Of a DNA stretch of 32,647 nt, positions 7,479 through 20,817 are shown in pieces (positions within the stretch are counted from its first letter, which is position 1; each line of letters begins with the position of its first letter). The DNA is from Actinomycetota bacterium (GTDB lineage: Bacteria > Actinomycetota > Thermoleophilia > Gaiellales > Gaiellaceae). A model generated the notes under the pieces. It saw nothing but the letters and a program-made list of their open reading frames with translations. It did no database searches and had not been told where the DNA came from. The DNA lies in contig PLZU01000029.1 in the NCBI GenBank assembly GCA_003152275.1, positions 1-32,647 of the forward strand, given 5' to 3'. Both the position numbers and the translations under genes were made by a program.

Positions 7479-10400
7479 CTAGAGCTTCTCGAGCGGCGCG
7501 TAGTCGAGCATGAGTCGGCGCTCGGTGCCGTCGTCGGCAAAGCGCACCGTGACGACACCACCCGGTTCGATGCGAACGACGACGCCCTCGCCGAGAGTCC
7601 CGTGCCGCACGTTGTCTCCCGTCCCGAGCGACGGGACGTCGTCGCGCGACGCAACCTGACTCTGCTTCGGCGCGCCGTAGTTCGACCATGAGGAGGGTTG
7701 CAGCCGCTCACGCTCGACGTGCTGCTCCGGCAGTTCGTCAAGGAAGCGGGACGGCAGGTTGTACGAGCGCCCTCCGTACAGCATCCGCGACGACGCGTGC
7801 AGGAGCGTCAGCCGTTCCATCGCACGCGTCATCCCGACATAACAGAGTCGCCGCTCTTCCTCGACTCCCTGCTCCTCGATCGACCGCGAGTGCGGGAAGA
7901 TCCCCTCCTCCATGCCGATCAGGTAGACGGCGCGGAACTCGAGGCCTTTCGCGTTGTGCAGTGTCATCAACGTGACAAGCGACCCTTCACCGCGAATGGC
8001 GTCCTGGTCGGAGTAGAGCGACACCTCCTGGAGGAATGACGAGAGCGTCGGCTCCGCCGCAGACTCGACCCACTCGCGGGCGAGCGAAACGAGCTCCTGC
8101 AGGTTCTCGATGCGTCCCTGCGCCTCGATCGTGCGCTCAGCCTCGAGCGAATCCATGTACCCCGACTGCTCGAGTACCCGCTCGATCAGCTCGGGAACGT
8201 CGTATTCCTGCGAGGCGGACATGAGTGACTGGATGACCGTTCGGAACGATGCGACAGCTTTCGCCGGCGCCGTGCCGACGCCGGCTGCTTCGGTGCGATC
8301 CATCGCCTCCCAGAGCGACATCTCCGCGTCGTCGGCAAAGGACATCAGCTTGGCGAGCGTCGAGTCGCCGATCCCCCGCCGCGGCCGGTTCGCGCTCCGC
8401 AAGAGCGACACCGCGTCGTACGGGTTGTCGATCACCTGGAGATACGCGACGAGATCCTTGATCTCCGCGCGCTCGTAGAAGCGCGGGCCGCCGATCACCT
8501 GGTATGCAACGCCCTGCCGGACGAGCACGTCCTCGAGCACGCGGCTCTGTGCGTTTGTCCGGTAGAAGACTGCGACCTCGCTGCCGTTGAAGCCTTCTTC
8601 GACGAGCCTCGCGATCTCCGCGGCAACGTAACGCGCTTCGGAGTGCTCGTCCTCCACCTCGACGACGCGCACAGGATCGCCGTCGCCGAGCTCCGACCAG
8701 AGGTTCTTCGGCTTGCGCTCGCGGTTGTGCGAGATGACGCCGTTCGCGGCCTCGAGGATCGAGTTTGTCGAGCGGTAGTTCTGCTCGAGCGCGATCGTCT
8801 TCGCGCCCGGGAAGTCGCGCTCGAACTCGAGCACGTTGCGGATGTCTGCGCCCCGGAACGCGTAGATCGAGTTGTGGGTGACGATCCCATCGGCGATGAA
8901 GTTGTGCGTACGTTCGACGTCGAGGTCGTAGACGGGGGCTTCGAGCTCGACCGGCTCGATCCGCTCAACGAGATCGAACTCGCCGTGTTCATCGACCATC
9001 ACCATTCCCGGCCTCACCGCCGACGCCGGCATAAAGGGAAGCGAGTTGCGCTCCTTGCCGACCCCGTCCGTCGGCGCCGCCAGGCGAGCCGTTAGTCGCA
9101 CGTTCGCTCCCGTTACACGCTTCAGCTCCACCGCAGCTTTCGCCACGCGACCGAAGTCAGCGGCTGCGGTCTCGACACGCCATCCTGTCGACCCTCGGTA
9201 CGCGGGGCGAACGGAGAAGCCTGCGCCCGCCACCGCGCGGCGTCCGGCCTCGTCATAGCCAAAGAGAGCGATTCGATGGAGAGGGCCCCCGCCGCGGCTG
9301 TCACCGCAGAGGCAGACGTTCACGCGCCTGCGCGTACGGACACCGTTCGTCGTCGTTGCTGCAACGAAATGCGGATGGGCGAAACTCAACCCCTGGTCTT
9401 GAAGGAGTTGCCGCCCGCCCGCCTCCGTGTAGAGGTTGTCGAAGAGATCGTCAATAACCCGCTGGTCTCCCACGACTGTTGTACTCCCTACCCGTTTCCC
9501 GGACTTGCGCGCAACGAACGGAATCGTCGGGACTCTGTATTGCAGCGAGAGCATCATCTCCTGCACCCGTGCGTCTGCCTCGCTCGCATGGACCGCAATT
9601 ACCCACGTTGCGTCGGCGTGCTCTTGCGTCATCCGCATCGCCGGGCCCGGCAGCGATTGCCCATGGCGATTGGTGTACGTTCTCGATGTGCCAAGCCGGT
9701 AGCCGACGTCGGCCTTCCACATCAAATACGTCATGTGGAGCTGTGGAGTACGCCCCACTTTGAAGCCGGCGAAATGCGTGTGTTCGGGAGTAGAGACGAT
9801 CCGGCGTCCGGAGGCCAGCGTGATCGCGACTCCTGCACCGCCTAGCGAGGCGTGCGTCCGCAGGACACGCGCAGGCCCAAAGCGGCCGCTTCCGTAGCAC
9901 GAGAGGAGGGCATCTCCCTCGGCGACCGCCTCGATCGGCTTCTTCGAGCCGTCGGCCATCGTCACCAGAGTCCCCTCAACGAGGCACTGATCCGGATCTC
10001 CGACAGCAAAAACGTTCGAGTGCTTCGTAGCGAGCAGTTGCAGGAAGCGGTACTGCGCATGGTTCGTATCCTGGTACTCGTCGACGAGCAGGTAGCGGAA
10101 CGCGCTCTGCCACTTCTCCTGCGCTTCGGGGAAGCGCTCGAGCACATCGACGGTGAGATAGAGCATGTCGTCGAAGTCGACGGCGTTCGAGTTGAACATC
10201 TTCGTCTGGTAGAGCTTGTAGACGTCTGCGACGGTCTGGTCGTAGAAGCTCGCTACGCGGCTCGCGTAGTCGTCGGGGCCGATCAGCTGGTTCTTCGCGT
10301 TCGAGATCTGCGAGTGGATGCCGCGCGGGGTGAAGCGCTTCGGGTCGCGTTCGAGATCCTCGAGGCATTGCTTCGTGAGCCGCAACTGGTCGGCGGTGTC

Positions 10401-10751
10401 GTAGATCGTGAAATTGGAGCGGTAGCCGAGCCGCGGCGCCTCGCGGCGCAGGATGCGCCCGCAGGCGGCGTGAAACGTCATCACCCAGGATGCGCGTGCA
10501 GGAGGCCCGACGAGATCCTCGACTCGCTCGCGCATCTCCGCCGCCGCCTTGTTCGTGAAGGTGATCGCGAGGATCTCAGGCGGCTTCACGCCAACCGCTG
10601 CGAGCAGGTGCGCGATGCGGCGCGTGAGGACGCGCGTCTTCCCCGAGCCCGCGCCGGCAATCACGAGCACAGGCCCCTCGGTCGTCAGCACGGCCTCCCG
10701 CTGTGCCGGATTCAGGTCTGCGAGGTACGTCTCCGGCGTTGTTGCGGCCAC
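7479..10751 (-). CDS. pcrA: PcrA/UvrD-family ATP-dependent DNA helicase, interrupted by an intein
   Basis: A superfamily 1A 3'-5' DNA helicase acting in repair and replication-conflict resolution. The 1090-residue precursor contains a 372-residue intein, leaving a 718-residue mature protein, the normal PcrA size. Visible motifs are Walker A GAGSGKT (about residues 33-39), motif II DEYQD (224-228), motif III GDPDQ/SIYAFRGAD split exactly by the intein, motif IV QNYRSTNS (about 657-664), motif V TLMTLHNAKGLEF and motif VI YVGMTRAMERL. The C-terminus is the Tudor-like tail typical of PcrA (GEGVVVRIEPGGVVTVRFAD). GTG 10751 was chosen because the family N-terminus (YLADLNPAQREAV) follows it and a TACGAT box lies 7 bases upstream. 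The frame is open further upstream, but that stretch runs into the divergent gene and is not family-like. Confidence 0.93.
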   Translation of the reverse strand: MAATTPETYLADLNPAQREAVLTTEGPVLVIAGAGSGKTRVLTRRIAHLLAAVGVKPPEILAITFTNKAAAEMRERVEDLVGPPARASWVMTFHAACGRILRREAPRLGYRSNFTIYDTADQLRLTKQCLEDLERDPKRFTPRGIHSQISNAKNQLIGPDDYASRVASFYDQTVADVYKLYQTKMFNSNAVDFDDMLYLTVDVLERFPEAQEKWQSAFRYLLVDEYQDTNHAQYRFLQLLATKHSNVFAVGDPDQCLVEGTLVTMADGSKKPIEAVAEGDALLSCYGSGRFGPARVLRTHASLGGAGVAITLASGRRIVSTPEHTHFAGFKVGRTPQLHMTYLMWKADVGYRLGTSRTYTNRHGQSLPGPAMRMTQEHADATWVIAVHASEADARVQEMMLSLQYRVPTIPFVARKSGKRVGSTTVVGDQRVIDDLFDNLYTEAGGRQLLQDQGLSFAHPHFVAATTTNGVRTRRRVNVCLCGDSRGGGPLHRIALFGYDEAGRRAVAGAGFSVRPAYRGSTGWRVETAAADFGRVAKAAVELKRVTGANVRLTARLAAPTDGVGKERNSLPFMPASAVRPGMVMVDEHGEFDLVERIEPVELEAPVYDLDVERTHNFIADGIVTHNSIYAFRGADIRNVLEFERDFPGAKTIALEQNYRSTNSILEAANGVISHNRERKPKNLWSELGDGDPVRVVEVEDEHSEARYVAAEIARLVEEGFNGSEVAVFYRTNAQSRVLEDVLVRQGVAYQVIGGPRFYERAEIKDLVAYLQVIDNPYDAVSLLRSANRPRRGIGDSTLAKLMSFADDAEMSLWEAMDRTEAAGVGTAPAKAVASFRTVIQSLMSASQEYDVPELIERVLEQSGYMDSLEAERTIEAQGRIENLQELVSLAREWVESAAEPTLSSFLQEVSLYSDQDAIRGEGSLVTLMTLHNAKGLEFRAVYLIGMEEGIFPHSRSIEEQGVEEERRLCYVGMTRAMERLTLLHASSRMLYGGRSYNLPSRFLDELPEQHVERERLQPSSWSNYGAPKQSQVASRDDVPSLGTGDNVRHGTLGEGVVVRIEPGGVVTVRFADDGTERRLMLDYAPLEKL
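8871..9986 (-). other. Intein within PcrA (372 residues)
   Basis: An in-frame insertion that removes itself from the helicase by protein splicing. It begins with Cys1 (CLVEGTLVTMADGS, block A), has block B TPEH in GRRIVSTPEHTHF, block F VYDLDVERTHNFIADG, and ends VTHN followed by the +1 Ser of the host motif (SIYAFRGAD). All splicing residues are present: N-terminal Cys, block B Thr and His, penultimate His, terminal Asn, +1 Ser. It should therefore be active. The roughly 230 residues between blocks B and F form an extra domain (it includes HADATWVIAVHASEAD and LQYRVPTIPF) with no recognisable LAGLIDADG motif. It may be a degenerate or unusual homing endonuclease region. Insertion at helicase motif III, a nearly invariant site, is typical of inteins. 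Confidence 0.93.
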
Positions 10752-10758
10752 GCTTTCG

Positions 10759-10764
10759 ATCGTA
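10759..10764 (-). promoter_or_regulatory. -10 box for pcrA (leaderless type)
   Basis: TACGAT on the minus strand ends 7 bases before GTG 10751, which supports that start codon. Confidence 0.45.
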
Positions 10765-10795
10765 GCGGCGGCCCTGGTGGTCGCTTTCCACAGCC

Positions 10796-11454
10796 GTGTC
10801 TTGTCTAGCCTCGTACTCTCGTGACGGTCCACTCGATCGCGGGGAGCACGAGCTCGTCTGGCAGGCGGAGCTCTTCGCGTCCATCGAGCAGGAGGGCTTC
10901 CGCGTCGCGGCGCCGCTCCCGCACGCCGTCGACGGCTGGACGGCAGCGCCATACCTCGACGGACGCCACGAGCCCGGGCGTTGGCGCGACATCATCGCGG
11001 TCGGCGAACAGTTCCACGCCGCGCTCGCCGACGCGCCGCGCCCGACGTGATCACCGACGCGCGAACGAGCCCGTGGGAGATCGGGGATCGCGTCGCCTGG
11101 GGCGAGCGGCCCTACGACGGGATCGACGACCTACTCGCCGCACTCGCGCCGGTTGACGCGCCCTCGCAGCTCATCCACGGCGACCTCACCTGCAACGTCC
11201 TCTTCCACGATGAGCTCCCGCCGGCGATCATCGACTTCGCCCCGTACTGGCGGCCGGCGGAGTACGCCACCGCGATCGTCCTCACCGACGCGTTCCTCTG
11301 GGAGAGTGCGCCCGAGGATCTCCTCGACGAAGCACATCCGCAGTACCTCCTGCGCGCGCTGATCTACCGCGGCGTGACGAGCATCGAGTCCGGCACCGAG
11401 TGGCGCCCGACGATCGCGCTCGCTCGTAGAATCGCGGGGTGCGGGTCGCGCTGA
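10796..11454 (+). pseudogene. Degraded aminoglycoside-phosphotransferase-like protein (truncated and frameshifted)
   Basis: Two reading frames together encode one actinobacterial phosphotransferase-like protein of the type annotated as TIGR02569. The first frame runs to a stop near 11050 and carries EGFRVAAPL, DGWTAAPYLDG and VGEQFHAALADAPRP. The second continues at about 11046 with DVITDARTSPWEIGDRVAWGE, the kinase signature HGDLTCNVLF, the metal-binding IDFAPYWRP and YLLRALIYR. One missing base (a -1 shift) at 11040-11048 would restore a single frame. The N-terminal part with the nucleotide-binding strand pair (about 40 residues in the family) is missing, and the space upstream is occupied by the pcrA promoter. 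So the gene is 5'-truncated even if the shift were a sequencing error. Its 3' end overlaps the start of the LLM oxidoreductase by 16 bases. Confidence 0.7.
11427..11432 (+). promoter_or_regulatory. -10 box for the LLM oxidoreductase (leaderless type)
   Basis: TAGAAT ends 6 bases before GTG 11439. It sits inside the 3' end of the degraded phosphotransferase, so the oxidoreductase does not depend on that gene for transcription. Confidence 0.5.
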
Positions 11455-12796: not shown

Positions 12797-13510
12797 TCAC
12801 CGACCGCGCTCTTCGAGCGCTGACTCGAGCCACCATGAGGCTTCGCGCAGCTCGTCCGCGTCGCTCGACTTCACGACGACCTCGACGGTGGGGCCGTCGG
12901 GGCCGAACGTCGGGTACGAGCCGACGAGCACGCCCGGCCAGCGTTTCCCCGCCTCGCTGAGCGCAGGCGCGATCACGCTCTCTCGCGTGCGGTAGGTGCG
13001 GCGCCACGAGCCGATCGGGCTGCCCCGGCGGAACTCCTCGGCGATCGAGTCGAACATCGCTTCCATCTCGGATGGGAGACCCGGCAGTACGTAGACATTC
13101 TCGATCGCGAAACCGGGCGCGCCACCGAGCGGATTCGCGATCGGACGCGCGCCGCGCGGGAGCGCCGCCCAACGCGCCGCGTACTCGGGGTCGCCGGCGA
13201 AGCGCGCGCGCAAGTCGGCGGCGAGCTCGGCAACCTCTTCCTGGGGCACGTCGAATGTGTACGCGAGCGCTTCACGCGTCAGATCGTCGGGCGTTCCGCC
13301 TAGCCCGCCGGTGACGATGAAGAAGTCGACCCGCGGCGCCTCGCGGCGAATCAGCTCCGCGATCGCCTCTATCTCATCCGGGACGGCAACGAGCAGGCGC
13401 GTCTCAACCCCAAGCGGCGCGAGCCGCTTCGCGAGCCAGGAGCCGTTCGTGTTCGGCACGTCGCCCGAAACGAGCTCGTTGCCAATCGTGAGGATCGCTG
13501 CTGTCGCCAC
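12797..13510 (-). CDS. CinA N-terminal-type (molybdopterin-binding fold) protein
   Basis: A 237-residue protein matching the N-terminal (COG1058, MoaB/MogA-fold) half of CinA: ILTIGNELVSGDVPNTNGSWLAKRL, then VTGGLGGTPDDLTREAL, then VYVLPGLPSEMEAMF. The C-terminal nicotinamide-nucleotide amidase domain (PncC) of full-length CinA (about 410 residues) is absent. In characterised CinA the N-terminal domain is an ADP-ribose pyrophosphatase. Whether this stand-alone copy does that is not known. GTG 13510 directly follows the TAG of the upstream frameshifted ORF, so it is translated as the last gene of the cobalamin operon or from read-through of it. A link to cofactor or nucleotide salvage is only suggestive. 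Confidence 0.85.
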   Translation of the reverse strand: MATAAILTIGNELVSGDVPNTNGSWLAKRLAPLGVETRLLVAVPDEIEAIAELIRREAPRVDFFIVTGGLGGTPDDLTREALAYTFDVPQEEVAELAADLRARFAGDPEYAARWAALPRGARPIANPLGGAPGFAIENVYVLPGLPSEMEAMFDSIAEEFRRGSPIGSWRRTYRTRESVIAPALSEAGKRWPGVLVGSYPTFGPDGPTVEVVVKSSDADELREASWWLESALEERGR

Positions 13511-14012
13511 CTACAGCTCGATAGTACGGCCGAGCACGCGACAGGCCCACGGGAGCGCGATCTCGAGCTGCGCGAGCTGGAAGCCACGCACTCCCGGCGC
13601 GCCCTCGGGCGGCGGCAGTCCCGCGAGCGCCGCGAAAAACCCTGCGACATACACGGCGAATCCGAGCTGCCGAGCCTCGCACTCGAGGGCGGGCCACAAC
13701 TGGATGCGTTCGGTGTCGACCCGTGGCTCCAGTCGAAGATGACCGCACGACCGTCCCCTCCGACCGGCGTCGTCTCCCAGCCGTCGACGAGCGCTGGGAG
13801 CGCCTCCTCGAGCCACGCCTGCGAAACGAACCCGAGGCGGAGAAACGGCTCCGGATCTCGAGCGACCGCCGGATCAGAAACGCGCGGCTGCCGTCGTCCA
13901 GCTCGACGATCCAGTGCTCGTTCACGGACCAGCCGCCGCTCGTCACGCGCGTCCATGCCGCCGCTGCGGAGCCGAGGATGCGCTCCGCACTTGCGACCGC
14001 GTCAGGCTTCAC
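13511..14012 (-). pseudogene. Frameshifted ORF, possibly a degraded phosphotransferase-like protein
   Basis: Three successive minus-strand frames make one continuous protein of about 165 residues. Frame one, from GTG 14012, has AVASAERILGSAAAAWTRV, NEHWIVELDDGSRAFLIRR. Frame two, from about 13865, has PFLRLGFVSQAWLEEALPAL and RAVIFDW. Frame three, from about 13725 to the TAG at 13511, has DTERIQLWPALECEARQLGF and FQLAQLEIALPWACRVLG. Both junctions are explained by one missing base each. The N-terminal part resembles the small lobe of aminoglycoside-phosphotransferase-like kinases, but no HGD catalytic loop is present, so the family call is weak. GTG 14012 overlaps the TGA of the toroid gene (GTGA), and its stop abuts the cinA start, so it once belonged, or still belongs, to the operon. 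Confidence 0.6.
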
Positions 14013-14803
14013 TTCAATGGAAACGATCTTCGCATGAGCGCCGGGAGCGCCTGTGCGCTGACCCAGAGCGGCGTCGTCGCATATTGCGTCGAGTAGCGGA
14101 CGCTGCCATCGGCGCGTTGCAGCTGCTTGAGGTAGCGGAACGCCGCGGCCGGCGGCTTGGCGCCCGCGGCGACGAACGCCTGGATCGCCCAGGCCGTCGA
14201 TTGCGCGTTCGAGCGTCCGCCCGCCTGCAGCGCGAAGCCGCCGTCTGTGGTCTCGCGCGCGCGGATGAACGTGATGCCACGTGTGACCGGCTTGCCTCGC
14301 ACACCCGCGGCGACGAGCGCCTGCACGGCCGCGCTCGTGTCGTCGGTATCTGCGCGCACGCCGCGAATCCAGGGGAAGCCGCCGGTGCTCGCCTGCGCGC
14401 GCAGCATCGTGCTCACGACGGCACCCGCGATGGGCTGGTTCGCTTGGCGCAGCGCGAGCACGCCCCAATACGTCGAGTTCAGCGCCTCGCCGATCGTTCC
14501 GCTCGGATGCACGAGCCCGCGCAGCGAGCCGAGCGCTGCGTCCGACGCTCCGCCTGTCACTGCCTCGGCCATGACGACGAGCTCGAGCTCGGTCGACGTC
14601 AGCCCTGACTCGTGCGCCAGCAGGTAGGTGCGCGTCGCAGCCGAAGTCTGAGCGCCCGCCGCGCGTAGCGCAAGGACTGCAGTCGCCGTCAGCGCAACGG
14701 TCGACTGGCTGCTCGGCTCCGCGTAACCGCCGTCAGGCTGCACGCGGCCCTGGACGAACGACAGCACGCTCGCAACCGCGAGCACGGCGACCTTCACGCC
14801 CAT
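14009..14803 (-). CDS. Alpha/alpha-toroid protein (prenyltransferase/squalene-cyclase repeats), candidate B12-binding alpha domain
   Basis: A 264-residue protein made of helix-pair repeats, each with a Q/ADGG-type turn: QPDGGYAEPSSQSTVAL, STGGFPWIRGVRADTDDTSA, TTDGGFALQAGGRSNAQSTA and RADGSVRYSTQ. It is too short for a triterpene cyclase and has no DxDD acid motif. The same alpha6/alpha6 fold forms the N-terminal, cobalamin-binding domain of animal intrinsic factor and transcobalamin. Its end, AQALPALMRRSF, resembles the end of that domain in intrinsic factor (AQVLPALMGKTF, recalled, not searched). The hydrophobic N-terminus (MGVKVAVLAVASVLSFVQG) is probably a signal peptide, but could be the first helix. 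Start ATG 14803 overlaps the ECF S-component stop by 10 bases. Sitting in a cobalamin-riboswitch operon, it is probably an extracellular B12-binding component. Confidence 0.7.
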   Translation of the reverse strand: MGVKVAVLAVASVLSFVQGRVQPDGGYAEPSSQSTVALTATAVLALRAAGAQTSAATRTYLLAHESGLTSTELELVVMAEAVTGGASDAALGSLRGLVHPSGTIGEALNSTYWGVLALRQANQPIAGAVVSTMLRAQASTGGFPWIRGVRADTDDTSAAVQALVAAGVRGKPVTRGITFIRARETTDGGFALQAGGRSNAQSTAWAIQAFVAAGAKPPAAAFRYLKQLQRADGSVRYSTQYATTPLWVSAQALPALMRRSFPLK

Positions 14804-15453
14804 ACGATTTCCGTCTTCAGCCTCTTGCCGTAGCGCTCCAGCATTCGCCGCAGTTCCGGCCCCACCGCGAGGGCGAGCGCAAGGTTGCCGCTCGCGTGCG
14901 CGACGTCGAACGGCAGGCCGGCCGCTTGACGGGCGATGAACGACGCCCAGTTGTGCGGAGCGAACGCGTACCAGTTCCACAGATCGAGCACGAAGCCGTA
15001 CGCGAAGCCGAGGATGCAGCAGGCGACCGCGAGCGAGATGCGCCGCCGTAGCAGCGGGGCAAGCAACGCGCCCGCGGCGCCGCAGCCGCCCCACGCGAGC
15101 ATCTGCCACGGCGTCCAGAGACCCTGCCCGAGGAAGAAATTCGAGACGAACGCCGCCGTCGCCCCGACACCGATCCCCGCGCGCATACCGAGAGCAACGC
15201 CACTAATCACGGCGAGGTCGGTGACGGGCTGCACGTCAGGTATCGGCGCGAGCAAGACGCGGCCCGCTGCGGCCGCCGCCGCAAGTGTCGCGATCACCGC
15301 GATCTCCTTTGCGGAGTCGGGGCCGCCGTCGAGCCAGGCGGCCGCTCCCGCGAGTAGCGCGGCTGCCGCGAGGAAGAGCGCGAGCGCCGATGCATGGGTT
15401 GCGAACGCCACCCCCGCGGACGCGCAGAGCACGATTAGAAAGACGCTACGCAA
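14794..15453 (-). CDS. ECF transporter substrate-binding (S) component, probably cobalamin-specific
   Basis: A 219-residue integral membrane protein with about six helices. It carries the S-component hallmark VQPVTDLAVISGVALGMRAG and SNFFLGQGLWTPWQMLAW, a pattern I associate with the CbrT-like group of ECF S components. It should bind the vitamin in the membrane and dock on the T subunit. Specificity for cobalamin or a precursor is inferred from the adenosylcobalamin riboswitch controlling the operon. The start is TTG 15453, overlapping the ATPase stop by 8 bases, with GGGAG about 8 bases upstream. Later GTG codons would cut into the first helix. The adjacent A and T genes make a complete dedicated (group I) transporter. 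Confidence 0.85.
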   Translation of the reverse strand: MRSVFLIVLCASAGVAFATHASALALFLAAAALLAGAAAWLDGGPDSAKEIAVIATLAAAAAAGRVLLAPIPDVQPVTDLAVISGVALGMRAGIGVGATAAFVSNFFLGQGLWTPWQMLAWGGCGAAGALLAPLLRRRISLAVACCILGFAYGFVLDLWNWYAFAPHNWASFIARQAAGLPFDVAHASGNLALALAVGPELRRMLERYGKRLKTEIVWA

Positions 15454-16783
15454 GAACCGGCTCCCGCTCGGGCGCGATCGCGACTTCGCGATCGGCGACG
15501 GCATGCGCAAACGCCCGGTCGTTCGTGACGACGAGCGTGGCGCGCTCGGCCGCGTGCGCGCGGAGAAGGGCGGCCAGCTCTTGCCTTCGCTCGGGGTCGA
15601 CGCCGCGCGTGGGCTCGTCGAGGACGAGCACATCGGGATCGGCGACGAGCACCGTCGCGAGCGCGAGCCGCTCTCGCTCGCCGGTCGATAGGTCGCGCGG
15701 ATGACGCGCCTCCGAGCCGGCGAGGCCGACAGCCGCAAGCATCTTCCTCGCGCGCGGAAGATCGGAGCCGAGCGCGACCTCCTCGTCCGCACGCTCACGC
15801 ACGAGGTAGCGGCCCGGATCCTGGAGAAGCATCGCCGCGGTGCCTGCGCGAACGACTCGGCCGGTCTGCGGCTCGAGCAATCCCGCGACGAGCTTCGCGA
15901 GCGTCGTCTTCCCGGAGCCGTTCGGCCCGGTGAGCGCGACGACCTCGCCGCGACGGAGCTCGAGCGAGACGTTTTCGAGCACCGGTCGCTCGTAGGCGAA
16001 GGAAACGTTCTCGACGCTGCACGCGACTTCGCCGACGACTGCAATCTGGTTGAAACCAGGTTGCTGCTCTACCCAGGCTGGGCGATGTTCTGCGAGCCAC
16101 TCGACTGCGTCGTCGCGCCTTGCGTCAAGCAGAACGCGCCCCTGCTCGAGGAAGAGGACGCGGTCGGCATAGCGCAGCGCGTTCGCCGGGCGCTGTTCCG
16201 AGATCACGACGCCCGCCTCGCCGCCGAGCGCGAGCTCGAAGAACGCCTCTGCCCCTGCCGGATCGAGCTGCGACGTCGGCTCGTCGAGTAGAAGCAGCTC
16301 CGGCTCGAGCGCGAGCGCCGAGGCGAGGCAGACGCGCTGCAGCTCGCCGCCGGAGATCTCGGTCACGCTGCGGTCGCTGAACCCGGCGATGCCGACGGCG
16401 GCGAGCGCGCGGTGGACTCGCGGCAGGATCGTCTCCGGCAACGCGCCGACGTTCTCGAGCGCGAATGCGACCTCGGAGTCGACGCGCCCGAGGATCACCT
16501 GGTCCTCCGGGTCCTGGAAGACCGTCGCAACCGTTCCTGCGAGCTCTGTCGGACGCGTGCTGCGCGTGTCGCGGCCCGCCACCTCGACACGGCCCTCGAA
16601 CCGGCCGCCGTGGAACCACGGCACGAGCCCGGCCAGCGCGCGCACGAGCGTCGACTTGCCCGAGCCTGACGCGCCGAGCAGCAGAACGACTTCGCCGCGC
16701 TCGACCTCGAGCGAAACCTCCAGGAGCGCCGGCGGCGACTCCGGGTACGCAAACGTCAGCCGGTCGACGCGCGCTAGAGCCAC
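15446..16783 (-). CDS. ECF transporter energy-coupling ATPase, two ABC domains fused
   Basis: A 445-residue protein with two complete ABC ATPase domains in tandem, equivalent to EcfA and EcfA' in one chain. Domain 1 has Walker A GASGSGKST (residues 37-45), Q-loop VFQDPEDQ, signature SGGELQRV and Walker B LLLLDEPTSQLD. Domain 2 has Walker A GPNGSGKTT, Q-loop LLQDPGRYL, signature LSTGERERL and Walker B VLVLDEPTRGVD. The VFQDPEDQ form is typical of ECF ATPases. The second signature reads STGE rather than SGGQ, a mild deviation. GTG 16783 overlaps the T-component stop by 10 bases. It powers uptake through the neighbouring T and S components. Confidence 0.92.
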   Translation of the reverse strand: MALARVDRLTFAYPESPPALLEVSLEVERGEVVLLLGASGSGKSTLVRALAGLVPWFHGGRFEGRVEVAGRDTRSTRPTELAGTVATVFQDPEDQVILGRVDSEVAFALENVGALPETILPRVHRALAAVGIAGFSDRSVTEISGGELQRVCLASALALEPELLLLDEPTSQLDPAGAEAFFELALGGEAGVVISEQRPANALRYADRVLFLEQGRVLLDARRDDAVEWLAEHRPAWVEQQPGFNQIAVVGEVACSVENVSFAYERPVLENVSLELRRGEVVALTGPNGSGKTTLAKLVAGLLEPQTGRVVRAGTAAMLLQDPGRYLVRERADEEVALGSDLPRARKMLAAVGLAGSEARHPRDLSTGERERLALATVLVADPDVLVLDEPTRGVDPERRQELAALLRAHAAERATLVVTNDRAFAHAVADREVAIAPEREPVLA

Positions 16784-17466
16784 AGCACTCCGACGACGAC
16801 GACCGCGACCGCCACAACGACGGCAGCTTGGTCACGCGGCTGCCACGGCGCCGCGGGCACGCGTGTCCTGCCCGAGCGACCGAAACCGCGCGCCTCCATT
16901 GCTTCGGCAAGGCTGAAGCCGCGCTCGAGCGATCCCGCGACGAGCGGCGAGAGCAGGGCAGCGTGGCCACGCAGGCCCTCGGGCGCGATGCCGCGGCCGC
17001 GCAGCGCCTCAACGAGCCCGCGCGCATCCCGCTCGAACGTCGGCACAAGCCGCGTCGCAAGCGCCGCAGCGAGAACCGAGTGGCGCGCAGTCGCCGCAGC
17101 GAGCAACCGGTCGTGATCGAGGAGCAGCGCATAGGCGGCGAATGCAAGGCCGACCGCAGCAAGCCGAAGCGCATTGAGCGCGGCGCCCCGCAGCTCCTCG
17201 GTCGTTACGTCGAGCGGCCCGAGCACCGGGATGGTCGGACCACTCCAGAGCACGTGATAGCCACGCGACTGGAAGAGCGGCCAGAGGATGAACACGAAGC
17301 CGGCGCTCCACAACGTTCCCCAGAGGTACGGCTTCGCGCGCCGCCCCGCCCGAAGACACACGGCGAGCAGCAGCGCCGCGAGCACGCCGACGGCCCACAA
17401 ACGGGTGGCGACGAGCGCCGTCACCGCGAGTCCGGAAAGCAGAATTGCCGCGGCGGTCGGTCTCAT
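16774..17466 (-). CDS. ECF transporter transmembrane (T) component
   Basis: A 230-residue CbiQ/EcfT-family membrane protein with hydrophobic segments at the N-terminus (TAAAILLSGLAVTALVATRL, then a second) and C-terminus. Both Ala-Arg-Gly-type coupling motifs that contact the ATPases are visible: EALRGRGIAPEG (first, slightly changed) and AEAMEARGFGRSG (second). It connects the ATPase to the S component. ATG 17466 overlaps the TGA of the upstream lipoprotein gene (ATGA), so translation is coupled. No separate promoter is seen. Confidence 0.88.
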   Translation of the reverse strand: MRPTAAAILLSGLAVTALVATRLWAVGVLAALLLAVCLRAGRRAKPYLWGTLWSAGFVFILWPLFQSRGYHVLWSGPTIPVLGPLDVTTEELRGAALNALRLAAVGLAFAAYALLLDHDRLLAAATARHSVLAAALATRLVPTFERDARGLVEALRGRGIAPEGLRGHAALLSPLVAGSLERGFSLAEAMEARGFGRSGRTRVPAAPWQPRDQAAVVVAVAVVVVGVLWL

Positions 17467-18122
17467 GGCACCGAATACCGGTAGCGGTACAAGGCAGGAT
17501 CGTGCGCGAGGCGTGCTGCGTTGCCTGCATACGTGAACTCGACCGCACCGCTCGAAAGCATCTGTGCCGTGAACCGCGCAGGCCCGCTCACCAGGCGGAG
17601 AACGTTCGCGCCGTCCGGCGCGTGCGCGGCAACGCGACCATGCACGATCTTTGCGAGCAACTGCGCAGCGTGACCTGAGCCGACGACGACCGCGGGTCGC
17701 ACCTTGCCGCCGTACCCGTGCACGAACGGCTCCGGGAACGCACCGACCACCACGGGGACGCTCTGTCCGACACGTCCCCAGTCTCGGTAATCCCACCACT
17801 CGACATCTCCGTCGTGCAAGCGGTAGTCGACTGCGCCGCGGGTCGCTTCGATTCCGTTCACGAAGTAGAACCAGTCGTGGCGGCTCGACGCCGAGCCCGA
17901 CAATCCGTTGATCGCCTGAACGAACCGGCCGCCGTATCGCGTGTCGAGCTTCACGGAGCGGTCGAGCGCCTGCATCGCCGTCTCATCGGCGGGCACGCGC
18001 TTGACGAGCAGAACCGTCTTCCCTTCGTCGCGCGTCACCCAGAGCGTCGCCTGGCCGTGCCCGACGCCGCCGCAGCCCGCGAGGAGTGCGCCTGCGGCGG
18101 CGACGAGACCCAGCCGGATCAC
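17463..18122 (-). CDS. DUF4430-domain lipoprotein, candidate B12-binding beta domain
   Basis: A 219-residue protein with a lipoprotein signal (lipobox LLAGC, Cys17), so it should be anchored on the outer face of the membrane beside the transporter. Residues of roughly 24-110 form a DUF4430 domain: TLWVTRDEGKTVL, then a helix with TAMQALDRSV, then HDWFYFVNGIEATRGAVDY and LHDGDVEWWDYRDW. This is the fold of the C-terminal beta domain of intrinsic factor and transcobalamin. The remaining ~100 residues (from EPFVHGYGGKVRPAVVV) form an additional region I do not recognise. GTG 18122 overlaps the stop of the upstream DUF4430 gene (GTGA). It probably holds captured corrinoid for delivery to the ECF S component. 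Confidence 0.8.
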   Translation of the reverse strand: MIRLGLVAAAGALLAGCGGVGHGQATLWVTRDEGKTVLLVKRVPADETAMQALDRSVKLDTRYGGRFVQAINGLSGSASSRHDWFYFVNGIEATRGAVDYRLHDGDVEWWDYRDWGRVGQSVPVVVGAFPEPFVHGYGGKVRPAVVVGSGHAAQLLAKIVHGRVAAHAPDGANVLRLVSGPARFTAQMLSSGAVEFTYAGNAARLAHDPALYRYRYSVP

Positions 18123-18712
18123 GGCAGTCGGTTCGAGCGAACCGCGCCGGGCGCGCTCGCCCAGACAAGGCCGTGCGGACGGACCGGACAGACGTGACCT
18201 GCGGGGGCGGGCACGATCTTCGGCCCGAGGTGGAAGACGAGCCCCGGCGGCACCGCCTCTTTGCCGTTGTCGTCCTGGCCGGTGGCGCGGTAACAGCCCG
18301 GCGACGGGCTCGAGAGCTCGAGCGTCGGTGGGCCGCCCGTCGGTCCGAACACCGCGTAGTACCAGAGCACGTTGTCGCCATCCTTCAGCTGCACCTGGTC
18401 GGCACCGACGGGCGGCGAGATGCCGTTCACCTTGAAGACCCAGCCGGCCTGGCCGCCACCGGGGTAGTAGCCGATCTGGTCGACGTACGGGCCGAACGAC
18501 GTGTTCGTGACGTGCGCGAAGAACTCGGCCGCGCGTGCCGTCGACAGGAGTACGTCGAGCGCGTTCGAGCCAAATGCGCGTGGCTCCGTGGCACCGAAGA
18601 TCGTCTGCGTCTTGCCTTCGACGCGAATGTGGACGATCGCAGCGGCCGCGAGGCCGGCGAGGGAGAGGGCGGTCGCGACGACCGCGAGAAGAACGAGAGA
18701 ACGACGAAACAC
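18119..18712 (-). CDS. Secreted DUF4430-domain protein, candidate B12-binding beta domain
   Basis: A 197-residue protein with a signal peptide (about residues 1-25, MFRRSLVLLAVVATALSLAG). Residues 26-122 form a DUF4430 domain. Its core, SFGPYVDQIGYY, GWVFKVNG, PPVGADQVQLKDGDNVLWYY, parallels the end of human intrinsic factor (SWGPYI..., YWELLSGG, VVRNGENLEVRW, recalled). A tail of about 75 residues with two cysteines follows (GCYRATGQ and HVCPVRP). The protein has no lipobox, so it may be released or held by partners. GTG 18712 has an excellent AAGGAGG site 5 bases upstream and lies 33 bases after the cobalamin riboswitch. It is the first gene of the operon. Confidence 0.82.
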   Translation of the reverse strand: MFRRSLVLLAVVATALSLAGLAAAAIVHIRVEGKTQTIFGATEPRAFGSNALDVLLSTARAAEFFAHVTNTSFGPYVDQIGYYPGGGQAGWVFKVNGISPPVGADQVQLKDGDNVLWYYAVFGPTGGPPTLELSSPSPGCYRATGQDDNGKEAVPPGLVFHLGPKIVPAPAGHVCPVRPHGLVWASAPGAVRSNRLP

Positions 18713-18745
18713 GAATCCTCCTTCCGCGAGGGGTTCGGGATGCGC

Positions 18746-18891
18746 GGCGAGCGACAGGTCTTCTGACTCGGGGCTCCCTTCTCCACCGCCTTCCCAGGCT
18801 TTGAGCCCAGTGGCGTGGTGGCGGAGAAGCGTCTCCCCTTACAGCGGCGGGACCGTCCCGGACTTGCACCGGAGTTCCCTTACCGCTCGCC
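18746..18891 (-). promoter_or_regulatory. Adenosylcobalamin (B12) riboswitch
   Basis: On the minus strand the element is closed by a perfect 8-base-pair P1 (18884-18891 with 18746-18753). It contains the class signatures in order: GGGAACTCCGGTGCAAGTCC, CTGTAAGGGGA, the B12 box region GCCACTGG, and GAGTCAGAAGACCTG. It precedes the DUF4430 gene by 33 bases. No strong terminator hairpin lies between, so control of ribosome access to the AAGGAGG site is more likely. When B12 is plentiful the whole operon would be shut off. Confidence 0.95.
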
Positions 18892-18904
18892 GGTTTGGAG
18901 CGCG

Positions 18905-18910
18905 AGTCTA
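18905..18910 (-). promoter_or_regulatory. Candidate -10 box for the B12 operon
   Basis: TAGACT on the minus strand, about 13 bases upstream of the riboswitch P1, would start the transcript near 18898. No good -35 is visible. It overlaps the divergent -10 at 18909. Confidence 0.4.
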
Positions 18911-18914
18911 GCAT
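18909..18914 (+). promoter_or_regulatory. -10 box for the HAD-like gene (leaderless type)
   Basis: TAGCAT on the plus strand ends 7 bases before TTG 18922 and shares two bases with the minus-strand TAGACT. Confidence 0.45.
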
Positions 18915-18921
18915 CGAGCGC

Positions 18922-19362
18922 TTGGAGGCCATCGCCCTCGATCTCGATGCCGTGCTCGCGGACACGCGGCCTCTCTGGCGGGACTGGCTCGAGGATGTGG
19001 CCCGGCGGACACACGTGGAGCTCGACGTGCCGGAAGATCGGGCCGCAGCCGCCGGCGTCCTCGACGAGCGGCTCGGCGACTGGCGACCGCTGCTCCAGCG
19101 CTTCGCCGACGACCGCGCTCCGCTTCACTTCCGGCCGCGCGCGGAGACGAGCGCGCAGCTCCGCCGCCTGCAGGCGGCGGGTGTGAGGATCGGCGTCTTC
19201 ACCGACGCGCCGCGCGAGCTCGCGGACGTCGCACTTGCTCACGTCGGCGCCGCACGCCGCGTCGAAACCGTTGGGACGCTCGACGAGGTCCTGCGAGTGC
19301 TCGGCGGCGGCGCGGTCGTGGTGCGCTCGCGGAGCGAGCTCGACCGCGCCGCCGCCGGCTAG
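18922..19362 (+). CDS. HAD-superfamily-like protein, small, motif IV not evident
   Basis: A 146-residue protein starting EAIALDLDAVLADTRPLW. The HAD nucleophile motif DxD is present (D7, D9), but the usual following Gly is Ala. Motif II is GVFTDAPREL. The region where motif IV acids normally sit reads GGGAVVVRSRSELDRA, without an obvious DD or GDxxxD, so phosphatase activity is uncertain. It is shorter than most HAD phosphatases (about 200-230 residues), mainly because the cap is small and the C-terminal strands are missing. TTG 18922 was chosen for its spacing to TAGCAT; an in-frame TTG at 18895 would run into the riboswitch edge. It is divergent from the B12 operon. A functional link is possible but not shown. 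Confidence 0.65.
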   Translation: MEAIALDLDAVLADTRPLWRDWLEDVARRTHVELDVPEDRAAAAGVLDERLGDWRPLLQRFADDRAPLHFRPRAETSAQLRRLQAAGVRIGVFTDAPRELADVALAHVGAARRVETVGTLDEVLRVLGGGAVVVRSRSELDRAAAG

Positions 19363-19404: not shown

Positions 19405-20817
19405 TTAGCGCAAGCGCCAGATGTCGAGCACGCCGCTCGTGGAGTGGTCGTTCGCGTTCCCTTCGGGAAGCGCGACGCGGCCGTCGACAACGATCGGGCT
19501 GTTCCAATGGCCGCTGCCCGAAGCGAGTGTGCCGACGAGCTTCCCACTTGCCGCCACGTACACGTTCAGGCCACCGTCCGGGTTGTAGACCCAGAGGAGC
19601 CCGCCCGCGACGATGGGGCTCGTTCCGCCGGTGCTGTTGCGCCAGGCCTTCGAGAGCCGTCCGTTGCGGAAGCGCCAGGCCTCGGTGCCGCCATTGTCGG
19701 CAGCGAAGAGCCAGGTGACGTTCGAGTGATGCCAGACCGCCGGCGCCGTGAAGAGGTCGGTGCCGGACGGTGTCGAGACGATCTGCAGCTCGCCGCCGCG
19801 ATGCGGTGCGGTTCCCCGCATCCGCTTGACGCTCAGAACCCGAATCTTCCCGTCCTTGCCGCCCTGCGCGATGTACCCCTCGCTGAGCAGCACCGGCGAC
19901 GTGGAGCCCAGGTCAAGGTCGCTCGAGTTCAGCTGCTCGGTGTTCGTCGGCGTGTAGTTGCCGAGCAGCGTCGACGCATCGCTCGAGAGCCGAAGCACCG
20001 CGTCACCCCAGTTGGTCGTCCCGTTCCAGGGCGCGTTGCCCGTCGCGATGAGCAGCTGTCCGTTTGCCGGGTCGACGACTGCGCCGGCGCGACCCCAGAT
20101 GGCTGAATCGCTCGCAGGGCAGCTCGCCGGGCCGATCAGCGCATGCCGGTCCGAGCAGAGCGAGTTCCACACATGGAGGAGCGCCCCTCCGGGGCTGATG
20201 ATCACGACGTGGCCCTGATACGGCGGCGCGTCACCGATGTAGCCGCCGGTGGTCGCGATCACGTGCCCGTTCGCGAAGTTGAGCGACGACGCGATCTTCT
20301 CGCGCGACGGGAGCGTCGTGATCGACACGCTCCACGCGCTGTGACCGTTGGCGACCGCGAGCTTGTAGATGCGACCGCCAGGCGAGGCAACGTAGATCCA
20401 TTGACGGCTCGGGTCGGCGACCGGCGTCGCCGTCGTGATCTGCGCGGAGCCGGCCCAGGACGCGTAGCCAGGCGGCGTGAACTGCCAGAGCACGTTCCCG
20501 CTCGTTGCGTCGATCGCGATGGTCTTGCCGTACGTCGTCGTGACGAAGAACACGTCGTGGGTCGCGCCGCCCACCTGAACGGCGTGGAGATAGATCGGCG
20601 AGGAGTCTGCGGTGCCGTCCAGCTGTACCTGCTGCTGTTGCAGCGATGTGACGTTTGCCGCGGTGATGCCGGTCGAAAACGTCGGCGCGCTGCTCCGCAC
20701 AGCGTTCCACCCGAAGCGTGTCCAGTCGTTGCCGGAGGATGCGGCGCGCGACGATCCGGCGCACATGGCGACCGCAAGCACAACGCAAGCGAAGCCGGTA
20801 ACGCGGCCCGGCGTCAC
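19405..20817 (-). CDS. Exported PQQ-type beta-propeller protein
   Basis: A 470-residue protein with a signal peptide (about residues 1-25) followed by a propeller of PQQ-like/outer-membrane-BamB-like blades. Repeats of the type G-x-x-x-A-I-D-A-x-S-G-x-x-x-W are visible, for example KTIAIDATSGNVLWQF, RIYKLAVANGHSAWSV and GLNVYVAASGKLVGTL. Cysteines pair plausibly in SLCSDRH and GPASCPAS. No quinoprotein dehydrogenase catalytic residues are evident, so it is more likely a binding or scaffold propeller than an enzyme. It starts at GTG 20817, 16 bases after the stop of the TrkA-type gene, so it may be co-transcribed with it. It converges with the HAD-like gene; the 42 bases between hold only a weak 5-base-pair hairpin (19381-19393). 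Confidence 0.75.
   Translation of the reverse strand: MTPGRVTGFACVVLAVAMCAGSSRAASSGNDWTRFGWNAVRSSAPTFSTGITAANVTSLQQQQVQLDGTADSSPIYLHAVQVGGATHDVFFVTTTYGKTIAIDATSGNVLWQFTPPGYASWAGSAQITTATPVADPSRQWIYVASPGGRIYKLAVANGHSAWSVSITTLPSREKIASSLNFANGHVIATTGGYIGDAPPYQGHVVIISPGGALLHVWNSLCSDRHALIGPASCPASDSAIWGRAGAVVDPANGQLLIATGNAPWNGTTNWGDAVLRLSSDASTLLGNYTPTNTEQLNSSDLDLGSTSPVLLSEGYIAQGGKDGKIRVLSVKRMRGTAPHRGGELQIVSTPSGTDLFTAPAVWHHSNVTWLFAADNGGTEAWRFRNGRLSKAWRNSTGGTSPIVAGGLLWVYNPDGGLNVYVAASGKLVGTLASGSGHWNSPIVVDGRVALPEGNANDHSTSGVLDIWRLR

What the first reader, a model, noticed from the sequence alone, without database searches (positions are those of the whole stretch)
12797..18910. Bacterial vitamin B12 capture operon with intrinsic-factor-like domains split over separate proteins
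Seen: an adenosylcobalamin riboswitch heads a leftward run in which each stop overlaps or abuts the next start (4, 4, 10, 8, 10, 4 and 0 bases). The order is secreted DUF4430, DUF4430 lipoprotein, ECF T, fused ECF ATPase, ECF S, alpha/alpha-toroid protein, frameshifted ORF, CinA N-domain. Known: animal intrinsic factor and transcobalamin consist of an alpha6/alpha6 toroid plus a DUF4430-type beta domain that clamp B12 between them. Inference: the toroid and the DUF4430 proteins assemble outside the cell around B12 and hand it to the ECF importer, a Gram-positive-type counterpart of mammalian B12 carriers. I am not aware of a characterised example of this exact split arrangement.
Basis: partly seen in the sequence, partly recalled or inferred. 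Interest (0 to 1): 0.88.

Follow-up and report, generated by a model that had tools for sequence, protein, structure and literature searches.

The report
Bacterial vitamin B12 capture-and-import operon
An actinobacterium carries a vitamin-B12-controlled set of genes that probably makes a two-jawed B12 trap outside the cell, similar in design to the trap that animals use, and feeds an importer; such traps were predicted in 2007, but this split form, and relatives in which one jaw appears welded to the importer, seem undescribed and are testable.

Summary
Observation confirmed: one cobalamin riboswitch (99.7 bits) heads a compact run of two DUF4430 proteins, ECF-T, fused ECF ATPase, ECF-S and an alpha6/alpha6 toroid; all seven stated overlaps are exact. 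The order D-D-T-A-S-toroid recurs across Thermoleophilia. All 42 relatives tested at the 5' end carry the riboswitch. In the window's family (43 genomes) the operon and BtuC-type permeases replace each other (strong permease in 1 of 23 versus 19 of 20, p = 5e-10), which argues strongly for B12/corrinoid uptake. Two relatives fuse DUF4430 to the toroid. In 18 of 19 Solirubrobacterales-labelled loci the toroid shares one open frame with the S component, usually behind a membrane-type helix. The idea itself is not new: Burroughs et al. 2007 predicted transcobalamin-like domain plus toroid plus CbiO/CbiQ operons for B12 scavenging. The toroid fold is confirmed (pLDDT 96.8), but no search singles out transcobalamin's alpha domain: PF01122 does not match, and the hits shown are mainly terpene cyclases, prenyltransferases and complement proteins. 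B12 binding, pairing and hand-over are inferred. Verdict: real; a new variant of a known (predicted) kind; interest about 0.55.

The parts
18736..18902 (-). cobalamin (B12) riboswitch, leader of the operon
   Evidence: RF00174, 99.7 bits, full model 1-189; only copy found in the held genome
18119..18712 (-). D1: secreted DUF4430 (transcobalamin beta-domain family) protein, 197 aa, GTG start
   Evidence: PF14478 46.6 bits, cut-off 23.8; D1-family profile finds transcobalamin-2 first in the PDB, E 0.033-0.29, not significant
17463..18122 (-). D2: DUF4430 lipoprotein, 219 aa, lipobox LLAGCGG by inspection
   Evidence: PF14478 48.3 bits, cut-off 23.8; 16 invariant columns in an alignment of the window protein and 17 relatives
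16774..17466 (-). ECF T component (CbiQ-like)
   Evidence: PF02361 33.7 bits, cut-off 25
15446..16783 (-). fused double ECF ATPase
   Evidence: two ABC_tran stretches, 186.8 bits; TIGR04520 270 bits, below its cut-off 315
14794..15453 (-). ECF S component, DUF6580 / PF12822 type
   Evidence: PF20221 31.0 bits over cut-off 27; PF12822 27.3 bits, below cut-off 30.7
14009..14803 (-). alpha6/alpha6 toroid, 264 aa, short N-terminal signal-like stretch
   Evidence: PF00432 28.3 bits, cut-off 26.5; AlphaFold2 pLDDT 96.8, pTM 0.93, 12 helices
13511..14012 (-). frameshifted open frame of unknown family, probably not part of the system
   Evidence: third-position GC moves through the three frames; two pieces without Pfam match
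12797..13510 (-). CinA N-terminal-domain protein; a neighbour kept in some relatives
   Evidence: PF00994 110.7 bits; detected in 14 of 80 related loci, many of them cut by contig ends

Best explanation
A B12 (corrinoid) import system. When adenosylcobalamin is scarce the riboswitch lets the operon be expressed. D1 (secreted), D2 (lipid-anchored) and the toroid act outside the membrane; the toroid and a DUF4430 domain close on one corrinoid as the two domains of transcobalamin do, and hand it to the S component, which a dedicated T subunit and a double ATPase drive inward. In most Solirubrobacterales-labelled loci the toroid appears to be covalently part of the S protein, so the trap is built on the importer. 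Shown: gene order, riboswitch linkage, domain families, predicted toroid fold, shared open frames, replacement of BtuC-type permeases. Inferred: B12 binding, which DUF4430 protein pairs with the toroid, export of the window's toroid, the hand-over.
For: RF00174 upstream of the operon in 42 of 42 relatives tested. In family f1, 43 genomes: a strong FecCD/BtuC permease in 1 of 23 genomes with DUF4430 and 19 of 20 without it, Fisher p 4.8e-10; in the 13 of those 19 whose coordinates the capped lists showed and I copied, the permease starts 927-1088 bases after a B12 riboswitch; the one genome with neither (G162) has CbiC. The window's genome: two B12-binding-domain matches over cut-off, no CbiC, no FecCD over cut-off, assembly 86% complete. 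DUF4430-toroid in one frame under a riboswitch (L139; L078). S and toroid in one frame in 22 of 46 loci that hold all five part types, and in 18 of 19 Solirubrobacterales-labelled loci with both. Toroid is a 12-helix alpha6/alpha6 barrel.
Against: No PF01122 match. Structure and sequence searches rank squalene-hopene cyclases, other terpene cyclases, prenyltransferases and complement proteins; no transcobalamin or intrinsic factor among the rows shown. The D1 match to transcobalamin-2 is not significant (E 0.033) and with D2 rows added falls to E 0.96, behind three other chains, two of them unrelated. The window's own toroid has an atypically short signal stretch. G171 carries both systems and G003 the operon together with CbiC. 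Eight further DUF4430-positive f1 genomes have weak FecCD matches (E 6e-4 to 8e-8). Two f1 genomes have DUF4430 without a toroid match (G138, G177) and two the reverse (G162, G185); no B12 riboswitch was found in G185.
Confidence: 0.68

Rival explanations
1. The DUF4430 proteins alone capture the corrinoid; the toroid is a structural adaptor that docks them on the S component and does not touch the ligand.
For: S and toroid in one frame suggest that the toroid sits on the importer. No search singles out the transcobalamin alpha domain.
Against: Riboswitch-led DUF4430-toroid pairs occur in fetched stretches where no ECF part was detected (L079, L082, L188, L189), so the toroid is probably not only a docking part. 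Polar residues at the N-ends of even-numbered helices are among the most conserved (Thr156, Gln201, Ser202, Thr244).
Confidence: 0.2
2. The substrate is not B12 itself but cobalt, cobinamide or another B12-related compound.
For: The T component and ATPase resemble the cobalt CbiQ/CbiO parts. B12 riboswitches also precede some cobalt uptake genes (PMC2667541, passages read).
Against: No CbiM or CbiN match among the seven proteins scanned (of the 79 ATPase matches 25 were shown). The window's genome has no CbiC, so cobalt for corrin synthesis would be of little use. The operon alternates with BtuC-type permeases. Cobinamide would remain a corrinoid and fits the main reading.
Confidence: 0.08
3. 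The toroid is an enzyme of the class II terpene cyclase or prenyltransferase kind and its place in the operon is incidental.
For: Best sequence and structure matches are squalene-hopene cyclase, drimenyl diphosphate synthase and farnesyltransferase. The window toroid contains DTDD, which fits the DxDD pattern (motif recalled).
Against: DxDD is kept in 24 of 79 aligned toroids; the third position is N in 34 and G in 4 of 79. Relatives look secreted or membrane-tethered. Gene order and shared frames tie it to DUF4430 and S.
Confidence: 0.04

Closest known systems
Bacterial transcobalamin-like SLBB proteins (Burroughs et al. 2007, PMC1796856; DUF4430)
   Same: Transcobalamin-type secreted domain, alpha/alpha toroid, often a second paralogue, operon with CbiO ATPase and CbiQ, hosts usually lacking B12 synthesis; predicted B12 scavenging (abstract, passages and part 1 of 2 of section 7 read)
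   Different: There: toroid fused to the domain, clade described in low-GC Gram-positives, planctomycetes and less often euryarchaea. Here: actinobacteria, toroid as a separate gene or in one frame with the ECF S component, riboswitch-led
Animal transcobalamin / intrinsic factor / haptocorrin
   Same: alpha/alpha toroid plus a beta-grasp domain that sandwich one B12 (PMC1796856, passage); DUF4430 at the C-terminus (PMC4350170, passage)
   Different: Split over separate genes; DUF4430 first where fused (L139, L078); no PF01122 match; an ECF importer in place of cell-surface receptors
ECF-CbrT of Lactobacillus delbrueckii (PMC5997447, passages)
   Same: ECF-type importer for cobalamin
   Different: There the S component itself is the substrate-binding protein; here extracellular capture proteins and a toroid are added, and the S component is of DUF6580/PF12822 type
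BtuFCD
   Same: B12 importer with an external binding protein; its permease family follows a B12 riboswitch in sister genomes
   Different: Unrelated permease and binding-protein families; the two systems nearly exclude each other in family f1. Only the FecCD permease was searched, not BtuF or BtuD
SCO2321 family (NF053823) loci
   Same: toroid next to T, A and S genes in L174-L176
   Different: The window toroid scores 58 bits against a cut-off of 300; in L174 and L175 the secreted protein between toroid and T gives no significant match to the D1 or D2 profile, and no riboswitch leads these three operons

Membership tests
Bacterial transcobalamin-like (DUF4430/SLBB) B12-scavenging systems | DUF4430 domain over the curated cut-off | tested here: met
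   46.6 and 48.3 bits against 23.8
Bacterial transcobalamin-like (DUF4430/SLBB) B12-scavenging systems | alpha/alpha toroid partner, fused or linked | tested here: met
   Separate gene in the operon, predicted 12-helix toroid; in one frame with DUF4430 in L139 (DUF4430 20.1 bits, under its cut-off) and L078 (32.1, over)
Bacterial transcobalamin-like (DUF4430/SLBB) B12-scavenging systems | operon with CbiO-like ATPase and CbiQ-like protein | tested here: met
Bacterial transcobalamin-like (DUF4430/SLBB) B12-scavenging systems | host lacks B12 synthesis | tested here: inconclusive
   Only CbiC was sought and is absent, in an 86% complete assembly
Bacterial transcobalamin-like (DUF4430/SLBB) B12-scavenging systems | B12 binding | not testable with these tools
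   needs protein
Animal intrinsic factor / transcobalamin | PF01122 cobalamin-binding alpha domain | tested here: not met
   No PF01122 at E up to 1 for the toroid
Animal intrinsic factor / transcobalamin | toroid structurally closest to the transcobalamin alpha domain | tested here: inconclusive
   None among the 50 rows shown of 574 or of 1953; the finer aligner was unavailable
Animal intrinsic factor / transcobalamin | both domains in one chain | tested here: not met
   Separate genes in the window
ECF importer with dedicated T, A and S | T, A and S encoded together | tested here: met
   CbiQ and ABC over cut-off; S is DUF6580 over cut-off, PF12822 just below
Cobalamin riboswitch | RF00174 over the gathering score | tested here: met
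   99.7 against 31.5 bits
Class II terpene cyclase | DxDD motif (recalled) conserved in the family | tested here: not met
   24 of 79 toroids; the window's own DTDD does fit
SCO2321 family (NF053823) | score over 300 bits | tested here: not met
   58.1 bits

The most novel reading that the evidence does not exclude
An ECF importer that carries its own two-jawed, transcobalamin-like trap. One jaw (the toroid) is permanently mounted on, or recruited to, the membrane S component, and the other jaws (a free and a lipid-anchored DUF4430 protein) close on it with B12 inside. The S-toroid chimera of Solirubrobacterales would be an ECF S component with a built-in extracellular substrate-capture domain, and the window's split form is a variant of the same machine. 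It would show how the parts that are combined in animal B12 carriers work in bacteria.
Probability: 0.45. Interest if true: 0.75.

Novelty: new variant of a known kind. Interest (0 to 1): 0.55.

Why it matters
In ECF importers the S component is described as the substrate-binding protein (PMC5997447, passages); an extracellular trap, and an S component fused to half of it, would change that picture. It gives a candidate B12 importer for the 22 of 43 sampled genomes of the window's family that have DUF4430 and no strong FecCD match. It makes the 2007 prediction about bacterial B12 traps and the origin of animal B12 carriers testable with small proteins and a cultured relative (Svornostia abyssi J379, locus L123).

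Tried and rejected
Tried and led nowhere: a direct structural test against transcobalamin. Foldseek lists only the top 50 rows, and none is transcobalamin or intrinsic factor; a profile of four ECF-less toroids gave only terpene cyclases and lanosterol synthase; mixing D1 and D2 rows weakened the transcobalamin-2 match. The fused DUF4430-toroid model (pLDDT 90.3, pTM 0.69) was returned without coordinates, so I could not ask whether the DUF4430 domain faces the toroid mouth.

Rejected: terpene cyclase (DxDD kept in 24 of 79); SCO2321 equivalog (58 of 300 bits); the claim of first description (Burroughs et al. 2007); CinA-N as a working part (found in 14 of 80 loci).

Weak points of my own tests. 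The helix N-end conservation contrast used helix ranges from the model and my own labelling of the even-numbered helices as inner. In some searches a shared open frame was taken as a fusion; in high-GC DNA that can be false for single loci. Of 35 such loci, 28 have a hydrophobic peak of at least 1.89 in the linker; seven do not (six with linkers of 20 residues or fewer, because the profile hit began early, and L143 with 40 residues and a peak of 0.67). The hydrophobic N-ends of free-standing toroids had no control set. The family-level table counts genomes and not independent events; FecCD also covers siderophore permeases; the strong-FecCD threshold (best E below 1e-40) was set after seeing the list, and eight DUF4430-positive genomes have weaker matches. 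The S gene of the cultured strain's locus L123 is split by an apparent frameshift in the record. The window's class name is inferred from the titles of its relatives, not looked up.
Full report
WHAT IS THERE. The window's - strand between 18902 and 12797 holds a cobalamin riboswitch followed by eight tightly packed frames. The riboswitch scores 99.7 bits over the full model and is the only one found in the held genome, which is 86% complete. Pfam supports two DUF4430 proteins, a CbiQ-like T component, a double ABC ATPase, an S component (DUF6580 over its cut-off, PF12822 just below), a toroid (Prenyltrans family over its cut-off) and a CinA N-domain protein. The frame between toroid and CinA shows the third-position GC signal moving through the three frames, so it is broken or mis-sequenced; the two pieces scanned gave no Pfam match.

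CONSERVATION. I cut out 20 operon-scale regions, chosen for kinship and for unusual layouts. Fifteen show D-D-T-A-S-toroid in that order (three of them with a third DUF4430), two show D-toroid-D-T-A-S, two show only D and toroid, and one has D, then D and toroid in one frame, then S. One scan of named genomes matched 165 stretches, of which 142 encode relatives; the best 80 loci were kept. Their titles are mostly Thermoleophilia, Solirubrobacterales or unspecified actinobacteria, nearly all metagenome-assembled, plus the cultured Svornostia abyssi J379; four carry odd labels (L134, L137, L151, L154). Of the 80, 46 hold all five part types; many others are cut by contig ends. I tested 42 loci that hold the 5' end and all 42 have RF00174 directly upstream. 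One more such locus, L146, was missed by my selection and not tested with Rfam; it has the exact B12-box 12-mer 92 bases before its first DUF4430 hit, as have 40 of the 42 tested loci within 320 bases.

BEYOND THE CLASS. I fetched 16 regions chosen from the hits. Five from other families of the phylum (L177-L180, L185) show a riboswitch, a DUF4430 protein, T, A, S and toroid in that order, with roughly 3 kb between riboswitch and DUF4430. In two of these that I read (L177, L179) that gap holds a large secreted propeller-like protein. L183 has riboswitch-D-toroid-T-A; L187 (riboswitch 37.6 bits) has toroid-T-A-S; L186 a toroid after a riboswitch that only just passes (32.5 of 31.5 bits). L188 and L189, from the window's class, like L079 and L082, have a riboswitch and a DUF4430-toroid pair with no ECF part found in the fetched stretch. 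L174 and L175 (SCO2321-family hits over the cut-off) have toroid-T-A-S without a riboswitch over the gathering score; the riboswitch in L176 lies on the opposite strand and does not lead its operon; L181, L182 and L184 have DUF4430 but no toroid match. So the toroid-DUF4430 link is common but not universal.

FUSIONS. In L139 (a Solirubrobacterales assembly) a riboswitch at 8084-8208 is followed by one secreted protein with DUF4430 and toroid, then T, A and S. The toroid is over its Pfam cut-off; DUF4430 is slightly under (20.1 of 23.8 bits). In L078 both are over their cut-offs, with a riboswitch upstream (43.0 bits). In 35 of the 71 loci that hold both S and toroid, the two lie in one open frame; among the 46 loci with all five part types the count is 22 in one frame, 23 separate and one D=toroid. 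By title, 18 of 19 loci labelled Solirubrobacterales or Solirubrobacteraceae with both parts have them in one frame, L139 being the exception. Of the 35 linkers 28 contain a clearly hydrophobic stretch and seven, as cut, do not. The 35 loci with a free-standing toroid gene all have a hydrophobic N-terminal stretch (11-residue peak of at least 1.6, no control set; L139 is listed there too but is the D=toroid case). The window's own stretch is short, so its export rests largely on its relatives.

STRUCTURE. AlphaFold2 gives the window toroid with pLDDT 96.8, pTM 0.93 and exactly twelve helices. Foldseek ranks squalene-hopene and drimenyl cyclases and prenyltransferases first; no transcobalamin or intrinsic factor is in the 50 rows shown of 574. 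Sequence profiles agree (60 rows shown of 76). The D1-family profile finds transcobalamin-2 as its five best PDB matches, but at E 0.033 to 0.29; the D2 profile finds only RUMGNA_00854, a putative metal-binding protein (a DUF4430 protein by recall), at E 0.7. So the fold class is confirmed by prediction and a special kinship to animal carriers is not. That transcobalamin proteins bear DUF4430 at the C-terminus comes from PMC4350170 (passage).

FUNCTION. The strongest evidence is replacement. In the window's family, 23 of 43 genomes have DUF4430 and 20 do not. A strong FecCD (BtuC-type) permease is in 1 of the 23 and 19 of the 20 (Fisher p 4.8e-10); eight more of the 23 have weak matches (E 6e-4 to 8e-8). 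In 13 of those 19, the ones whose coordinates the lists showed, the permease starts 927-1088 bases after a cobalamin riboswitch on the same strand; no riboswitch was found in G185, and for the other five the riboswitch coordinates were not listed. The one genome with neither system has CbiC, a corrin synthesis gene. The four other sampled genomes of the window's genus are all of the FecCD type. The window's genome has two B12-binding-domain matches over cut-off, no CbiC and no FecCD over cut-off. I conclude that the operon imports B12 or a close corrinoid (about 0.85). The clamp between toroid and DUF4430 is less sure (about 0.65): it rests on the two shared frames, on the ECF-less pairs, on analogy with transcobalamin and on conserved polar residues at helix N-ends. 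The alternative that the toroid is only an adaptor is open.

WHAT IS KNOWN. Burroughs et al. 2007 (PMC1796856; abstract, passages and part 1 of 2 of section 7 read) defined the transcobalamin-like clade, noted bacterial fusions with toroids in both orders, second paralogues, CbiO and CbiQ neighbours and lack of B12 synthesis, proposed B12 scavenging, and proposed transfer to animals from low-GC Gram-positives. They listed low-GC Gram-positives, planctomycetes and, less often, euryarchaea as holders of this clade. My ten literature searches (open-licence papers only) showed no experimental work on such a system and no S-toroid fusion, judged from listings; I read passages of PMC4350170, PMC2667541 and PMC5997447. 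Absence from that library is not absence from print.

VERDICT. A real, conserved and well-defined B12 uptake operon; a new variant of a kind predicted in 2007. Interest comes from the S-toroid chimera, the split form, and the sharp replacement of BtuC-type permeases.

Noticed in passing
window 7479-10952 (- strand): UvrD/PcrA-like helicase frame of 1157 aa with an intein-like insert: it starts at Cys after the DPDQ stretch (CLVEGTLV) and ends VTHN before Ser (helicase and intein readings recalled, not searched).
   Followed up: no
window 19405-20817 (- strand): Secreted propeller-like protein (by eye) just upstream of the riboswitch, on the same strand. In L177 and L179 a large propeller-like secreted protein is the first gene after the riboswitch; possibly a related surface part.
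   Followed up: partly
L091 9762-11054 (- strand): A GNAT acetyltransferase gene lies antisense between toroid and CinA; in the window this place holds the frameshifted ORF.
   Followed up: partly
L188, L189, L082, L079: Riboswitch-led DUF4430-toroid pairs with no ECF part detected in the fetched stretch, a minimal two-jaw unit that may serve another importer.
   Followed up: partly
L182 6910-12426 (- strand): A very long frame (about 1839 aa) with several DUF4430 copies next to D, T, A, A and S genes, in a stretch without a toroid match.
   Followed up: no
window 18895-19362 (+ strand): An open frame on the + strand reaches into the riboswitch region from the other side (18895-18902), so the two share a few bases.
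   Followed up: no
G171: The only family f1 genome with both systems: the operon on C55 and a FecCD gene 189 bases after a second B12 riboswitch on C112.
   Followed up: partly
L123 8292-8871: The S gene of the complete Svornostia abyssi J379 record is split over two frames that overlap, an apparent frameshift.
   Followed up: no
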